This document shows positions 44,873-53,993 of a DNA stretch of 64,000 nt, one piece after another. Numbering within the stretch: the first letter of the stretch is position 1; every line of letters starts with the position of its first letter. This DNA comes from an uncultured Lachnospiraceae bacterium. GTDB taxonomy: Bacteria > Bacillota > Clostridia > Lachnospirales > Lachnospiraceae. Where the stretch lies: the NCBI GenBank assembly GCA_947565425.1, contig CANOFW010000006.1, positions 1 to 64,000 of the forward strand. The letters run 5' to 3'. Under the pieces are notes generated by a model. It searched no databases. It saw nothing but the letters and a program-made list of their open reading frames with translations, and had not been told where the DNA came from. A program made the translations under genes and the position numbers.

Positions 44873-47731
44873 TTAATCTTCAAAATCCTTTTCCCTTAGG
44901 TACAAATAGCCTTCAGGATTAAATTTCTTCCCGCCAAATAATTTTTTCAGGCCCCCGCGCTCTGCTCTTGCAATCGCTTCATCCACAATTTCCTTCACCT
45001 CTGTCAGAGTCGTCGCCTCATCTAACTTCTGAATATTGCTAATTCGGTTATAAAGCGCCAGAATACCCATATCATCTATTTCACATTCCTGCTCATTTGC
45101 ATATGCCTTAGCAAACTCCACCAGCTCGTCGCTGGTAAAAATAGGTATCTTAATTCGTTCTGTAAATTTCTTGGCAAAGTTCACATCCAGGTTAAGAAGT
45201 TTCTCCATACCGCTGCTAGTATCTTCCATGATTACTAACAATCCATCTGTATTCTGTTCCATCAAAAGCGACAATGCAGTAGCTGTTTTCTTTGATATAT
45301 CTCCCGCCTTTTCAATGATAAGATAACCGCCTGCCACCTTTTTTATGAGCTGGCTTAATTCTTTCTGATTTAATGATTCCCCGGTAATCTTGCCAACTTT
45401 ACCATTGGCATGTTTGCTGTTCAATTTAATCACTTTAATCAAATCTGTTGCCAGCACTGTCTTACCGCTTCCTCTACCGCCTATAATTAAAATATTACCG
45501 CTTGAGGATGTATTGTCATTTCCCTTTCTGTGCAGGGCGCCCTCTAATACCTGGCACAACTGCTGCTCCATGCCGCTGATAGGAACAAAATAAGAAAAAA
45601 TCTTCTTCTGCTCAGGACTTAGCTTATTAATATGATCGCTTGATTCCTCAAGTTCAATTTTCGGAACACCAACTTTTTCCTTCTCTTCACGAGATACTTT
45701 TGCCGCCTCAAACACAGATTGAAGATATTGTCCAGCATCTTCCTTTTTAGAGGCAGACTTTGACTTCTTTTTCTCTTTCCCTTCATCTTCCACCACATTG
45801 CTCTTTTCCACAACCTTCTCGTCGGATACTCCATCCTCTGAATGAGCATTTTTCTTCGCTGCGGCTTCCTGCCGCATTTTTTCTAAATATTCTTCCGGTA
45901 TTTTCTCTCCGAGAATCTTCGCAGCTTCCTCCCATGTCGATATGGAATTAGAAATTTCCCCCATATCCCGCGTATCGCCAAGCGCCTGCGCATTCTCCAA
46001 CGTCTGAATGTCTTCCGGCAACGGTACATCCTGCGGCATTTGAATATCTTCCGGCAACGGTACATCCTGCGGCATTTGAATATCTTCCGGCAATGGTACG
46101 TCCTGCGGCATTTGAATATCTTCCGGCAACGGTACGTCCTGCGGCATTCTCTGCGACGGTTCTGTTTCTTCCGCCTTCTGCTCGTTGTCCAGTATCTGAA
46201 CTGGTTTTGACGTTTGTACGTCGCCCATCTTCTGCACATCTTCTGCCAGCGGCACACTCTCCACGCTCTGCATATCTTCTGCCAGCGGCATACCGTGCAT
46301 ATCTTCTGCTAGCGGTTCCCCTTCTATCATCTGCATATCTTCTGCTAAAGGCATACCCTGTATATCTTCTGCTAGCGGTTCCCCTTCTGCCATCTGCATA
46401 TCTTCTGTTAGCTGCTCACCTTCGACCGTCTGTATATCCTCCGACAAGCGTAGATTCTCTTCCATACCCGGTTCTTCAAGGGAAACACCCTGTAAATCCT
46501 GCGCTTCCATCAACTCACTGGGACTAACTCCAGCCTCAAGTTTTGGAATAATATCATGAAGCCGCTCCAATAAGTCCCATGCTTCCTGCATTGCGCGTGC
46601 TTTTGCAGACTCCAGCCTTTTTTGCTGCGCCGCTGCCATTGCAGTTTCCGCTGCAATTCTGGTTTTCTCCCAATCAGCCAAAACTTCCTCTATGCCAATT
46701 TGCCCATTAACCTGAGGTTCACGAATTCCGCCCCCTTCAACAGAAAAACTAATCTGCCCATCCCAATCTTCGGCAAGCATTTCCGCAAAATCATTCCTCA
46801 GTGTATTATCTATTTCTTCCTCTGTCTCAATATGCCCATACCGCTCTTCTTCCGCCGCACGGTTACCTTCCTCCACAGGAACCTGCAAATAGGGGATATC
46901 CTCTACCATCTTTTTGAGGTTATCCATCGTATCATTGACCGTCTCTTTCGTGTTGGCGTCCATAATCTGCTGCATACTTTTAGCAATTTCCGCCTGTAGA
47001 TTCTGTGTATTAAAACGTCCGGTATTTGCCGTAACTTTAGGAATTTGTATCGTCTCTTGCGCAAGCTCGCCTGACTCCAAGACATCAGAGCCATGCACCT
47101 TTACCACATTCCCCTTGCGCTGCATGAATTCCTGATACTTCTCTTGCTGTGTCAGCGTTAATGGCTGATGAAGCATTTTTAACTCCAGCGCCTTTTCCAC
47201 ATATTTGCTGTCGCCGATCCACAGTACCAACTCATCACAGACTTCCACACACCGCTCGCCGTTCCCAATTTTATGATACAGATATGCAAGCTCAAAGACC
47301 CACTCCTCGCGGTATTCCCGCTCCTTGAATTCTTCCAGAATATCTATTAACTGTGGCAAATCTGCACCGCTCATCTTTGCAATTTCATAGCGAAGAATAT
47401 ACTTCTGGTTATCGTAAGGTGCAACTTCCAGAAAATCCTCATAATAATCTTTCGCCTCGTCCAGATTTCCCATTTTCAGAGAAACCAATGTCAGACGATA
47501 CAATATATTCCTGCCTACAGCCGCGCGATCATAAGCCATCTGAAGAATCTCATAACTCTCATCGTATCGTTTACATCTGTCGTAAATCTCCCCTACCATG
47601 CACAAAGTCGCTGAACTCCTGACTTTTCGCCAGTTAATGGTATCAGCAATTTCTGCCGCAGTCTGATAATTCTTCTCTTCTACAAGGCTTTTCAACTGTT
47701 CCAGTTTTAACTTGTACTCGTATTTATCCAA
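44873..47731 (-). CDS. TPR/AAA+ protein with acidic repeat linker
   Basis: Product of 952 residues with a TTG start at 47731 (after GAGGTGAAATAG). The N-terminal 190 residues are TPR-like (VGEIYDRCKRYDESYEILQM, and several related helices). A Glu/Gln-rich linker follows, with 12-residue units such as MPQDVPLPEDIQ and variants EPLAEDMQ. The C-terminal AAA+ domain (about 740-930) has Walker A GGRGSGKT (751-758), but the Walker B reads GYLIIEKAG with an atypical acidic pair. The end carries RGGLKKLFGGKKF. It is reminiscent of the EccA/CbbX-type chaperone ATPases. Function is unknown. Confidence 0.75.
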   Translation of the reverse strand: MDKYEYKLKLEQLKSLVEEKNYQTAAEIADTINWRKVRSSATLCMVGEIYDRCKRYDESYEILQMAYDRAAVGRNILYRLTLVSLKMGNLDEAKDYYEDFLEVAPYDNQKYILRYEIAKMSGADLPQLIDILEEFKEREYREEWVFELAYLYHKIGNGERCVEVCDELVLWIGDSKYVEKALELKMLHQPLTLTQQEKYQEFMQRKGNVVKVHGSDVLESGELAQETIQIPKVTANTGRFNTQNLQAEIAKSMQQIMDANTKETVNDTMDNLKKMVEDIPYLQVPVEEGNRAAEEERYGHIETEEEIDNTLRNDFAEMLAEDWDGQISFSVEGGGIREPQVNGQIGIEEVLADWEKTRIAAETAMAAAQQKRLESAKARAMQEAWDLLERLHDIIPKLEAGVSPSELMEAQDLQGVSLEEPGMEENLRLSEDIQTVEGEQLTEDMQMAEGEPLAEDIQGMPLAEDMQMIEGEPLAEDMHGMPLAEDMQSVESVPLAEDVQKMGDVQTSKPVQILDNEQKAEETEPSQRMPQDVPLPEDIQMPQDVPLPEDIQMPQDVPLPEDIQMPQDVPLPEDIQTLENAQALGDTRDMGEISNSISTWEEAAKILGEKIPEEYLEKMRQEAAAKKNAHSEDGVSDEKVVEKSNVVEDEGKEKKKSKSASKKEDAGQYLQSVFEAAKVSREEKEKVGVPKIELEESSDHINKLSPEQKKIFSYFVPISGMEQQLCQVLEGALHRKGNDNTSSSGNILIIGGRGSGKTVLATDLIKVIKLNSKHANGKVGKITGESLNQKELSQLIKKVAGGYLIIEKAGDISKKTATALSLLMEQNTDGLLVIMEDTSSGMEKLLNLDVNFAKKFTERIKIPIFTSDELVEFAKAYANEQECEIDDMGILALYNRISNIQKLDEATTLTEVKEIVDEAIARAERGGLKKLFGGKKFNPEGYLYLREKDFED
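46007..46147 (-). repeat. 36-bp tandem repeats in the AAA+ protein linker
   Basis: Nearly four copies of a 36-bp unit encode MPQDVPLPEDIQ. The copies differ at only one or two bases, so the expansion is recent. Flanking stretches to about 46440 carry older, diverged units (EPLAEDMQ, MPLAEDMQ). Confidence 0.9.
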
Positions 47732-51623: not shown

Positions 51624-51912
51624 GTATTTGCCTCCTATAATTTCTGGTATATAATCTTTTAAAATTTGCAAAAATATCTGCAATTCTCATTATAATGTGC
51701 CTGTCACGGAAATACAAGGACAAATTTTCTTAGAAATTTGGAAATAAATAATAGTTTGAAATTTTCTATGCAAAAGATAATTTCATATTTACATTTATAT
51801 ATACTTTATCAATTTAATAAATATTTTTTTCATATACAAGTTTTTATAGAAATTTTTATCATATTGCACTATAATATTTATAATAAGAATAATTGTAAGA
51901 GGGGAACATTTT
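51624..51912. promoter_or_regulatory. AT-rich divergent region between the aconitase and island genes
   Basis: This 289-bp stretch has no gene. From about 51,720 it becomes strongly AT-rich. A TATAAT at 51870-51875 is a candidate -10 for the island operon; no convincing -35 is seen at 17 bp. AAGAGGGG at the right end is the ribosome binding site of the first island gene. Confidence 0.5.
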
Positions 51913-53070
51913 TTGAAAAATATAAATATGTTATTTGAGAATAATGACCAATACGCATATAAAATTAATATTATAAAGGGTTCAATTGTATTTCAGGGTT
52001 ATGACAATAAATTTTCTGGTAACACTATATTAAAAATTATAAACTTTATAAATACTGTACACAAAAAATATAAAAATTCAAAAATAACTATAGTCTTCTT
52101 ATTTAAAGAAATAGAAATAGTGGACAAGCTATCCTATATATTGTTTGAATGTATATGTTACTATCTGATGAAAAATTGTCACCACAAAGTTTATTTATAT
52201 TGGAATCCCCAAGACAGTATTTTAACAAGAGGAATTTTTTTGTCACCTCTAAAATATCTAAACAATAATAAAAATAATTTAGATATTTTTTTACAGAAGT
52301 TTGAAAAAGACATTTATCAACGCCATTTTCGCAGATTAATAAGTAATGATAAAGAAACTACTAACTATCTTGGAAATTTATTGCAAGAACTGGACAGCTT
52401 TTTAAAATTCTTTTCCATAACAGAAGAATATCGAGATCAAATTTCAGAGGTAATTACTGAATTAACTGGAAACGCTTGTGAACATGGATGTACCGATTGT
52501 TTATTAGATATTGACATAACGGCTAGTTATAAGAAATCCATCGAAGGCATTCGACAAAAAGGCAATTTTTATGGCATCAATATTGCGATTGTTAATTTTT
52601 CTAATATACTACTTGGTGATGGAATAAAAGCAAAAATTGATAGTGGTAATTTAAACGAACCTAGATACATAGATTTAAGAAATGCATATAATTACCATAA
52701 AACATTTTTTACAGAAGATTATACATACGCAGACTTTTGCAATCTCTCTTCCTTACAGGATAAAATTTCTGGAAGAACAGATTATGGACCCTCAGGTGGT
52801 ACTGGACTTACAAAATTAATTCATTCTTTACAAAAAATCTCAGATGTTGACAAATGCTATGTCATCAGCGGACATAGAGGTGTCTTTTTTTTAAAAAATG
52901 TATTAAACTATGACGATAGAAACTGGCTTGGTTTCAATGAAGAAAAAGATTTTTTTCATGCCACACCAAAAAATGATGTCACAACTGAATGCTATATCTT
53001 CTTCCCCGGAACAGCCTATAATTTAAATTTTGTTATGAAAAGAGAGGATGATTACAATGACCACAATTAA
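51913..53070 (+). CDS. STAS-like/GHKL ATPase protein, AT-rich island
   Basis: Product of 385 residues with a TTG start at 51913, 8 bp after GAGGGG; the next in-frame ATG is 15 bp downstream. The first ~115 residues alternate strands and helices like a STAS fold (KINIIKGSIVFQGY, KITIVFLFKEIEIVDKLSYI). The C-terminal half is a GHKL (HATPase_c-like) domain: N-box ITELTGNACEHG (181-192) and glycine box YGPSGGTGLTKLIHSL (291-306). There is no HisKA helix pair, so it is more like anti-sigma-type or MORC-like ATPases than a sensor kinase. Codon use is strongly AT-biased compared with neighbours. It is the first gene of a three-gene unit. Confidence 0.82.
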   Translation: MKNINMLFENNDQYAYKINIIKGSIVFQGYDNKFSGNTILKIINFINTVHKKYKNSKITIVFLFKEIEIVDKLSYILFECICYYLMKNCHHKVYLYWNPQDSILTRGIFLSPLKYLNNNKNNLDIFLQKFEKDIYQRHFRRLISNDKETTNYLGNLLQELDSFLKFFSITEEYRDQISEVITELTGNACEHGCTDCLLDIDITASYKKSIEGIRQKGNFYGINIAIVNFSNILLGDGIKAKIDSGNLNEPRYIDLRNAYNYHKTFFTEDYTYADFCNLSSLQDKISGRTDYGPSGGTGLTKLIHSLQKISDVDKCYVISGHRGVFFLKNVLNYDDRNWLGFNEEKDFFHATPKNDVTTECYIFFPGTAYNLNFVMKREDDYNDHN

Positions 53071-53338
53071 TTTAGAATTTCCTAAAAGCGAAACAAGACT
53101 AGCTGGTTTTCCATACGGTGAGAATGTTTATCAAAGCCAAGCAAAAGAAAAAATATCTTTTGATGAGAAAATCACAATCATTTTTCCAGATCAAATTGAA
53201 AAAGTCGCTTCTTCCTTTGTACAGGGATTTTTTGCAAATATTGTTATGGAAATCGGATATAAAGGAATAGAAAAAAACGTTATTATTAAGACTAAAAACG
53301 AAAACCTTACATCTTCTATTCGTAAAAATATTTATTGA
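53057..53338 (+). CDS. STAS-like DUF4325 protein
   Basis: Product of 93 residues from the ATG at 53057, preceded by GAGAGG; an in-frame ATG three codons upstream is possible. The fold resembles STAS-like DUF4325 proteins: ITIIFPDQIEKVASSFVQGF (about 39-58), then FANIVMEIGYKGIEKNVIIK. It overlaps the ATPase gene by 14 bp, so translation is coupled. A small STAS protein next to a GHKL ATPase parallels partner-switch pairs such as SpoIIAA/SpoIIAB. No phospho-acceptor Ser is obvious beyond the VASSF position. Confidence 0.72.
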   Translation: MTTINLEFPKSETRLAGFPYGENVYQSQAKEKISFDEKITIIFPDQIEKVASSFVQGFFANIVMEIGYKGIEKNVIIKTKNENLTSSIRKNIY

Positions 53339-53352
53339 TCGAGGTGACACTT

Positions 53353-53862
53353 ATGATATTTTATTTACTGGCTGCATCTACACAGCCTATTGCTGAAAAA
53401 GCATACCCATCATTAGAATTAATTTTGTCAATCCTTGCCATTATTATCTCCGTTTTTTCCGTAATCTTTGAATATTTTTGGAATAAAAAAATCAATAAAA
53501 CTAATCTGGAAGCAGATTTTTTCAAGGATATCTATGGTGATTATTTAATGACAAAAATTCCAAAAGCCAGACTTGTTATCCATTTTAGCAACGGAGTTGT
53601 ATCAGAAACAGAAGATCTAATTGAAGAAATAAATGATATGAGACGTTCCTCATTATTCTATAAATATAACGACAAAAACTATTATAATAGGCTTAGTAAA
53701 CAAATCCAACACTTAGAAGATTTCTTAGTTAGTAATCCAGGTCCTTTAACCGACGATGAATACGCTGAATTTATTCAAAAGGTTAATGACGATATCGAAG
53801 AAATATATGATATTATTATGAAAAAATACATAGGTAAAAAAGTATTTAACTTCTTTCAATAG
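53353..53862 (+). CDS. Small membrane protein of the AT-rich island
   Basis: Product of 169 residues from the ATG at 53353, preceded by GAGGTGACACTT. One hydrophobic segment (about residues 22-42, LELILSILAIIISVFSVIFEY) anchors the protein, followed by a basic boundary (WNKKINK) and a helical, charged cytoplasmic domain. Nothing in that domain is recognised. It is the third gene, 14 bp after the STAS-like gene. Its membrane position makes it the candidate effector or anchor of the module. Confidence 0.7.
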   Translation: MIFYLLAASTQPIAEKAYPSLELILSILAIIISVFSVIFEYFWNKKINKTNLEADFFKDIYGDYLMTKIPKARLVIHFSNGVVSETEDLIEEINDMRRSSLFYKYNDKNYYNRLSKQIQHLEDFLVSNPGPLTDDEYAEFIQKVNDDIEEIYDIIMKKYIGKKVFNFFQ

Positions 53863-53941
53863 AAAGCATTTCTCCTATATTAATTATCATCTACAAAGCC
53901 AACCCATATTCTTAACCATAAACTTCATAATTAAAATATCT

Positions 53942-53976
53942 CTAAGCCCTGTCCCGTACTACGGGACAGGGCTTAG
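53942..53976. terminator. Bidirectional hairpin between the island and the histidine kinase
   Basis: CTAAGCCCTGTCCCGTA pairs perfectly with its inverse, giving a very strong GC-rich stem, between convergent genes. A short T-rich stretch follows on the minus strand only (ATATTTTAATT). Confidence 0.75.
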
Positions 53977-53993
53977 CTTCCATTCGATCTCTC

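What the first reader, a model, noticed from the sequence alone, without database searches (positions are those of the whole stretch)
51913..53862. Candidate undescribed three-gene system: STAS/GHKL ATPase, STAS-like protein, membrane protein
Three tightly spaced or overlapping plus-strand genes sit alone between minus-strand genes, in markedly AT-rich DNA. The first protein joins a STAS-like N-terminus to a GHKL ATPase (ELTGNACEHG and GGTGLTKLIHSL boxes) without a HisKA helix pair. The second is a DUF4325 STAS-like protein. The third has one membrane segment and an unrecognised cytoplasmic part. The ATPase-STAS pairing parallels anti-sigma/anti-anti-sigma switches, so I infer a sensing switch that controls a membrane effector, possibly in phage defence or stress signalling.
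Basis: partly seen in the sequence, partly recalled or inferred. Interest (0 to 1): 0.8.

Follow-up and report, generated by a model that had tools for sequence, protein, structure and literature searches.

The report
Kinase-STAS switch with membrane effector
Three genes that travel together on phages, plasmids and bacterial chromosomes look like a small cell-defence circuit in which a kinase-like protein would switch off a guard protein and so free a membrane-bound effector; the parts and their conservation are shown, the activity is not.

Summary
Three plus-strand genes (51913-53862, 28-31% GC) encode K (385 aa, GHKL-like), S (93-96 aa, DUF4325 STAS-like) and M (169 aa, one N-terminal membrane segment). 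They form a conserved mobile cassette: K, S, M order is kept in 30 of 32 distinct loci (Lachnospiraceae, other Clostridia, Paenibacillus, Enterococcus, Lactococcus plasmids, viral contigs); the others are a contig end and a decayed copy. No neighbour recurs in more than 3 loci. In four of ten same-genus genomes the site has no room for it. Ser56 of S is invariant in 35 of 35 aligned S proteins. Distant K-S-M trios occur on a Marinobacter phage and on Vibrio, Acinetobacter, Novosphingobium and Leptospira plasmids. The closest known systems are CapKS and VapKSC (PMC13373217): a STAS-GHKL kinase phosphorylates one serine of a STAS protein and so frees DNA or a VapC toxin. Here the third gene is a small membrane protein: I call it a new variant, an abortive-infection-like switch with a membrane effector.

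The parts
51856..51884 (+). possible sigma-70-type promoter (TTATCA-17-TATAAT) upstream of gene 1
   Evidence: 10 of 12 consensus matches, but 19 sites found in the stretch against 16.3 expected from shuffles, so weak
51913..53070 (+). gene K: 385 aa, proposed STAS-like N-terminus plus atypical GHKL ATPase/kinase domain (N-box-like E183..N187..H191; N228-F-S where a G1 box would be; G2-like GGTG 295-298)
   Evidence: E183, N187, H191 in 32 of 32 aligned proteins
53057..53338 (+). gene S: DUF4325 STAS-like protein, 93 aa from ATG 53057 (96 aa from ATG 53048; overlaps gene K)
   Evidence: PF14213, 26.5 bits, cut-off 23
53213..53218 (+). codons of Ser56-Phe57 of S (numbered from ATG 53048), the invariant pair and candidate phospho-acceptor
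   Evidence: Ser 35 of 35 and Phe 35 of 35 (30 close, 5 distant S proteins); acceptor role inferred
53353..53862 (+). gene M: 169 aa, one N-terminal membrane segment (residues 21-39) and a cytoplasmic part without known family
   Evidence: (no family over cut-off)
53942..53976 (-). 16-pair hairpin between the cassette and the convergent histidine kinase gene, terminator-like for the minus strand

Best explanation
A mobile three-gene stress or phage-defence switch of the CapKS/VapKSC kind with a membrane effector. Shown: the three genes form one conserved cassette that comes and goes between related genomes; S has an invariant serine inside a STAS-like domain; M is a small protein with one N-terminal membrane segment and a predicted cytoplasmic body. 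Inferred: in resting cells S binds M and keeps it inactive. A signal that may come from phage infection activates K, which phosphorylates Ser56 of S; phospho-S lets go of M; free M acts on the inner membrane and stops growth or kills the infected cell. The trigger is unknown: ssDNA activates CapK, but K of this clade lacks the strongly basic N-terminus of the more distant K proteins.
For: K-S-M order in 30 of 32 distinct loci, the exceptions being a contig end and a decayed copy. Pairwise distances of the three proteins correlate over 26 loci (r 0.72, 0.76, 0.63; 0 of 5000 permutations each; linked genes would do this anyway). M hits fall in the same 9 of 397 family genomes as K, plus one chance hit; the 6 plasmid records with M are among the 7 with K. 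Ser56 invariant in 35 of 35. M has one N-terminal hydrophobic segment in 27 of 28 rows (two overlapping ones in L027), with more K/R after than before it in 26 of 28; by a like criterion 4 of 91 flanking ORFs of similar size show that layout. Same K-S-M layout in distant subfamilies: L133, L134, L082, phage and plasmid loci L160-L163, L167, L188. Context: 8 distinct viral contigs; phage tail or endolysin genes near L021, L024, L027, L030; type I R-M genes beside L014/L016 and L017, Abi_2 near L013 and L015, AIPR and an AbiEii-like AAA near L020, a specificity subunit and a C5 methyltransferase around L034. The mechanism is taken from VapKSC: VapS inhibits VapC, S48E abolishes that, the operon protects against phage Bas42 (PMC13373217).
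Against: GHKL identity of K is marginal: Pfam E 0.041 for the window; 2 of 28 relatives reach E 0.01 in HATPase_c_2; of five distant K proteins none is over a cut-off, best E 0.00035. Profile alignment to 3 SpoIIAB-like proteins matches only around the N-box (E 0.0027, probability 11%), and so does that to the DUF4325 fusion proteins (E 0.0012, 19%). The G1 aspartate position is Asn in 29 of 32, so ATP binding or catalysis may be altered or lost. S does not align to SpoIIAA profiles; no solved CapS or VapS was found by sequence. One distant S-like protein (L165, no K beside it) has Gly at the serine position. M resembles no toxin family. In 11 of 19 genome loci I identified no phage or defence gene. 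The PADLOC control was not empty (55 families against 187). K was found in only 1 of 398 genomes over the phylum, the window's own. No protein was tested and no structure predicted.
Confidence: 0.5

Rival explanations
1. M is the sensor, not the effector: a membrane protein feels envelope stress or phage entry and passes the signal to the K-S pair, which acts on some host target or on transcription.
For: K-S pairs act as regulators in CapKS; M's single membrane segment with a cytoplasmic body would also suit a receptor.
Against: S here is a bare 93-96 aa domain without the wHTH of CapS, and no recurrent fourth gene lies beside the cassette to be controlled (no neighbour family in more than 3 loci). 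In VapKSC the third gene is the toxin.
Confidence: 0.2
2. A selfish toxin-antitoxin-like maintenance module of mobile elements (M toxin, S antitoxin, K release factor), with phage defence at most a side effect.
For: Copies on plasmids and in viral contigs; genes annotated as TA beside distant relatives L161 (MazEF), L162 (RelE/ParE) and L167 (HepT and nucleotidyltransferase).
Against: Present alone at a chromosomal site in the window, with no room for it there in four of ten same-genus genomes; a kinase is not needed for a simple addiction module.
Confidence: 0.2
3. An anti-sigma/anti-anti-sigma switch proper (SpoIIAB/SpoIIAA or RsbW/RsbV type) that controls an unlinked sigma factor; M only anchors it.
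For: K-like plus STAS-like pair with an invariant serine.
Against: No sigma factor gene recurs beside the cassette; M is co-inherited with K and S; the cassette is found in different classes and on phages, where a fixed host sigma partner is unlikely; no profile match of S to SpoIIAA.
Confidence: 0.07
4. K is a pseudo-kinase: the Asn in the G1 position abolishes catalysis, and the switch works by binding alone.
For: Position 228 is Asn in 29 of 32, Ser in 2, Asp in 1 (L009).
Against: N-box-like and G2-like residues remain invariant, which suggests that nucleotide binding is kept; distant K proteins such as AS1, V. alfacsensis and Leptospira read D-x-G-x-G (by eye).
Confidence: 0.15

Closest known systems
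VapKSC (vapK-vapS-vapC; PMC13373217: abstract, passages and sections 7, 11, 13, 14 read)
   Same: Three-gene order: STAS-GHKL kinase, short STAS protein with a conserved Ser or Thr, then a third gene whose product the STAS protein inhibits; 36% near other defence genes by that paper.
   Different: Third gene is a PIN nuclease there, a membrane protein here; VapS needs a C-terminal tail (residues 94-116) that the 93-96 aa S here lacks; no sequence comparison was possible because VapKSC sequences were not at hand.
CapK-CapS regulators of CBASS/Bub and other operons (same paper)
   Same: Kinase-STAS gene pair; phosphorylation of one serine releases the partner.
   Different: CapK has an N-terminal HTH and CapS a wHTH DNA-binding domain; CapKS controls transcription of a neighbouring operon. 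Here S is STAS-like only and no neighbouring operon is conserved.
SpoIIAB-SpoIIAA / RsbW-RsbV partner switches (recalled, and as cited in PMC13373217)
   Same: GHKL serine kinase and STAS substrate logic.
   Different: No sigma factor gene; a membrane protein in its place; no profile match of S to SpoIIAA.
DUF4325 proteins (PF14213)
   Same: S belongs to it.
   Different: In the host family the fetched DUF4325 domains are mostly the end of 311-396 aa proteins (25 of 30 loci), with a helix-turn-helix and GHKL part in my reading of L055, not stand-alone.
Francisella phage KIRK genes Fhv_0046-0048 (PMC7924643, one table passage seen)
   Same: Listed in a row as a 293-aa protein, a 112-aa DUF4325 protein and a 125-aa TM protein.
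   Different: No function is given in that passage; sequences not compared here.

Membership tests
DUF4325 (PF14213), STAS-like | profile score over the curated cut-off | tested here: met
   26.5 bits against 23, E 5.2e-6
VapKSC | third gene encodes a VapC-like PIN nuclease | tested here: not met
   M has a membrane segment and no family over cut-off in Pfam, nothing in NCBIfam or PADLOC, nothing better than E 0.02 in PHROGs
VapKSC | first protein with STAS and GHKL kinase domains | tested here: inconclusive
   N-box-like and G2-like residues invariant, Pfam HATPase_c_2 E 0.041, 2 of 28 relatives at E 0.01 or better; no STAS hit in K
VapKSC | absolutely conserved Ser/Thr in the STAS protein | tested here: met
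   Ser56 35 of 35; that it corresponds to VapS S48 is inferred
VapKSC | C-terminal tail of the STAS protein that blocks the toxin | tested here: not met
   S ends about 10 residues after the DUF4325 match (24-86 of 96 aa)
VapKSC / CapKS | aromatic residue between STAS and GHKL that is needed for activation by ssDNA (CapK W68, VapK F54) | not testable with these tools
   no CapK or VapK sequence at hand and no structure prediction
CapKS | CapS wHTH domain, DNA-binding repressor | tested here: not met
   S is a single 93-96 aa domain
SpoIIAB/SpoIIAA partner switch | linked sigma factor gene | tested here: not met
   third gene is M; no neighbour family recurs in more than 3 loci
known anti-phage system in PADLOC-DB 2.0.0 | model match of the three proteins | tested here: not met
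   only weak hits: K to Aga_Nuclease E 0.042, S to Cas6b E 0.0044, none for M

The most novel reading that the evidence does not exclude
K-S-M is a widespread, undescribed class of abortive-infection systems, present in at least Firmicutes, Proteobacteria, Spirochaetes and phages, in which one kinase-STAS switch has been fitted with unrelated small membrane effectors, as VapKSC fitted it with a nuclease; the clade of the window also carries a clade-wide Asp-to-Asn change in the GHKL nucleotide pocket that may alter nucleotide use.
Probability: 0.4. Interest if true: 0.78.

Novelty: new variant of a known kind. Interest (0 to 1): 0.62.

Why it matters
If true, the kinase-STAS switch known from sporulation and, since 2026, from two immune settings is a general module that bacteria and phages fit with exchangeable effectors, here membrane proteins. 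That would add a family of defence candidates with a clear, one-residue test (Ser56), and a dairy-plasmid copy makes it testable in a harmless host.

Tried and rejected
Structure prediction of K and M: tool off, so no fold search either. Sequence search of solved structures with single proteins and profiles: nothing of use. NCBIfam: no hit; PADLOC: only weak hits to unrelated names. Profile alignment of S to SpoIIAA and to the DUF4325 fusion proteins, and of K to SpoIIAA or to S: no support. Two scripts failed to collect SpoIIAB-like proteins; the third found them in 3 of 10 loci. M hit in G265: rejected as chance, four stops and overlap with other ORFs. AbiR of Lactococcus was considered because of the plasmid context; only a search listing was seen, no sequence was compared, and it was not pursued. 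Defence enrichment: over 119 flanking proteins 187 PADLOC families match at 1e-10, over 119 proteins picked at random from 149 ORFs at unselected contig starts of the cassette-carrying genomes 55 match; one restriction subunit matches many models, so I treat this as weak. One search listed 206 flanking ORFs; 119 of them went into the scan, the viral contigs and some others being left out. A search of 398 genomes over the phylum found K only in the window's own genome, so the close clade is rare outside the family sample.

Full report
What is there. The window holds three plus-strand genes at 51913-53862 between minus-strand genes, in DNA of 28-31% GC against 36-51% in the other 1-kb bins. I call them K (385 aa, 51913-53070, TTG start), S (93 aa, 53057-53338; 96 aa if ATG 53048 is used) and M (169 aa, 53353-53862). 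S matches DUF4325, a STAS-like family, over Pfam's cut-off; K reaches only E 0.041 with a histidine-kinase-type ATPase model, under its cut-off; M gets only weak hits under cut-off, the best E 0.018. NCBIfam gave nothing; PADLOC only E 0.042 for K and E 0.0044 for S, to unrelated names. The best PHROGs are of unknown function: phrog_3364 for K at E 4.5e-5, phrog_37359 for S at E 0.0015, and E 0.02 for M.

A conserved cassette. Searches with K gave 9 of 397 genomes of the family, 7 plasmid records, one unverified phage scaffold, 18 loci in a one-genome-per-species collection and 9 in viral contigs. I dropped repeats of the same locus before counting: L003, L004, L005, L007, L008 repeat L020, L026, L030, L032, L033; L038 repeats L036; L016 and three further plasmid records repeat L014 or L015, judged by equal scores; L011 holds the first part of a K at a contig end of the genome of L008/L033. 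I set aside the distant L009 and L010. That leaves 32 distinct loci, the window included. K, S and M follow each other on one strand in 30 of 32. The exceptions are L032, where the contig ends 96 bases after K, and L034, where K and M are broken by frame changes and only S is whole. Among the 30, K is split over two frames in L006 and L040, M in L012, and K is cut by the contig start in L033. L009 and L010 also keep the order. Distances between the three proteins correlate over 26 loci (r 0.72, 0.76 and 0.63; 0 of 5000 permutations each), as linked genes inherited together would. M was sought on its own in 397 family genomes: it is in the 9 that have K (in G353 only as a short stretch with two stops on another contig) and, as a chance match with four stops, in one more. 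In plasmids M hits 6 records, all among the 7 with K. No neighbouring gene family recurs in more than 3 loci, so the unit is three genes.

It moves. Of ten same-genus genomes examined for the two flanking genes, four have the matches 105-389 bases apart, too little for the cassette (G176, G791, G796, G790; in G790 part of the distance is unmatched gene), three carry other genes between them (G792, G797, G794) and three have them on different contigs. In the window the distance is about 2.4 kb. Among 29 same-genus genomes only the window's own has this type; two have a distant relative (L133, L134). Eight distinct copies are in viral contigs. Of 19 copies from genomes (18, plus L006), four lie beside phage tail or endolysin genes (L021, L024, L027, L030) and four beside restriction, methylation or Abi-type genes (L017, L020, L029, L034); in 11 of 19 I identified neither, having named only selected neighbours by family search. 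The three distinct plasmid copies sit near type I restriction genes (Lactococcus cremoris, L014/L016) or an Abi_2 gene (Enterococcus L013, Eubacterium eligens megaplasmid L015). A crude PADLOC count favours flanks over a control, 187 families against 55, but is inflated by redundant models. K was not found outside the window's own genome in 398 genomes over the phylum, so the close clade is patchy and rare.

Anatomy. In an alignment of 32 K proteins (28 close, plus L133, L134, L009, L010) E183, N187 and H191 (N-box-like) are kept in 32 of 32, and G296 and G298 (G2-like) in 32 of 32. Where the G1 aspartate would be, position 228 is Asn in 29, Ser in 2 and Asp in 1; the box names are recalled, the positions are from the alignment. 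Profile alignment to SpoIIAB-like proteins matches only around the N-box (E 0.0027). K's N-terminal part is STAS-like in my reading of L133 and L134, but no model confirms it. S has Ser56-Phe57 in 35 of 35 proteins (30 close, plus L133, L134, L009, L010, L082). M has one hydrophobic segment near its N-terminus in 27 of 28 aligned rows, and two overlapping ones in L027, with more K/R after than before it in 26 of 28, which by the positive-inside rule (recalled) puts the rest in the cytoplasm. By a like criterion 4 of 91 flanking ORFs of 130-200 aa have that layout.

A wider layout. DUF4325 is found in 36 of 397 family genomes; in 25 of 30 fetched loci it is the end of a 311-396 aa protein. One stand-alone case, L082, is again a trio: a HATPase_c protein over the Pfam cut-off, a DUF4325 protein and a 168-aa protein with two hydrophobic segments. 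With L082's S, one phage and ten plasmid records matched; with L082's K, one plasmid record, the Leptospira one, and no phage. I opened nine of the eleven S records (H23 and H24 were not opened). Six carry the trio: Marinobacter phage AS1 and plasmids of Vibrio alfacsensis, Acinetobacter indicus, Novosphingobium (M unannotated there), Leptospira interrogans, and A. wuhouensis with K cut short beside an insertion sequence. In three I saw no K beside S: L165, L166 and L189. In an alignment of nine such S proteins, L165 alone has Gly where the serine would be. A search with the AS1 K added Vibrio scophthalmi. The seven third proteins have 141-191 aa and one or two hydrophobic segments (A. wuhouensis just below the threshold; V. 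scophthalmi strongest near the C-terminus). Of five of them scanned with Pfam none has a PIN or other domain over cut-off, and of the five K proteins none is over a cut-off either (HATPase_c_2 E 0.00035 at best). Those five K proteins start with 16-21 K/R in 50 residues; the 28 K proteins of the window's clade have 3-13. A Francisella prophage table lists a like row of three genes.

Closest known system. Chambers et al. (PMC13373217; abstract, passages and sections 7, 11, 13 and 14 read) describe CapK, an HTH-STAS-GHKL kinase activated by ssDNA, which phosphorylates Ser54 of the repressor CapS, and VapKSC, where VapS inhibits the VapC nuclease, S48E abolishes the inhibition, and the operon gives about 2 logs of protection against phage Bas42. 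The order kinase, STAS protein, effector is the same as here; the third gene differs, and S here lacks VapS's tail. In the sections read no membrane effector is mentioned, and 'transmembrane' has no occurrence in the paper. Searches for DUF4325, STAS with GHKL, partner switching and the like showed no other description in the rows listed; most of them matched more papers than were listed, and the library lacks most subscription papers and bioRxiv.

Mechanism. I therefore propose that S holds M, K releases it by phosphorylating Ser56, and M acts on the membrane. All three steps rest on analogy; the invariant serine and the membrane segment are what the sequences show. The trigger is open: the CapK trigger, ssDNA, is possible, but the charge pattern of K in this clade does not point to it. 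The Asn in the G1 position is the main internal doubt about catalysis. Verdict: real, conserved, mobile, very probably a conflict or stress module, and a new variant of the kinase-STAS switch kind.

Noticed in passing
L133:904-2881 and L134:611-2787: Two same-genus genomes carry a divergent K-S-M trio (K 375-441 aa, S 106 aa with PSFFGG, M 170-177 aa) at other sites.
   Followed up: partly
25 of the loci L055-L084: Proteins of 311-396 aa end in DUF4325, with a helix-turn-helix and a GHKL part in my reading of L055; where stand-alone S proteins have SSF, these read GQGF, GQAF or similar, so the candidate serine seems lost in the fused form (read by eye).
   Followed up: no
window 51684-53993 and L120-L132: The space between the aconitase-type and histidine kinase genes varies in the genus: a short gap, the cassette, a 787-aa PAS-type sensor protein, or a small lipoprotein-like gene (gene names by eye).
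   Followed up: partly
L165:2974-3696 and L189:2974-3696: Vibrio loci with an S-like gene and no K beside it; in L165 the serine position is Gly and the next gene encodes a 126-aa protein with several hydrophobic segments.
   Followed up: no
L009:232-1179 and L010:2483-3382: In the distant L009 and L010 M is extended to 316 and 300 aa with a C-terminal part that no Pfam family matches.
   Followed up: no
window, about 45900-46400 (minus-strand ORF 44873-47731): A 952-aa protein contains four near-identical repeats reading PQDVPLPEDIQ and related units.
   Followed up: no
L013:2704-9951: The Enterococcus faecium plasmid copy lies about 3.3 kb downstream of the annotated optrA gene.
   Followed up: no
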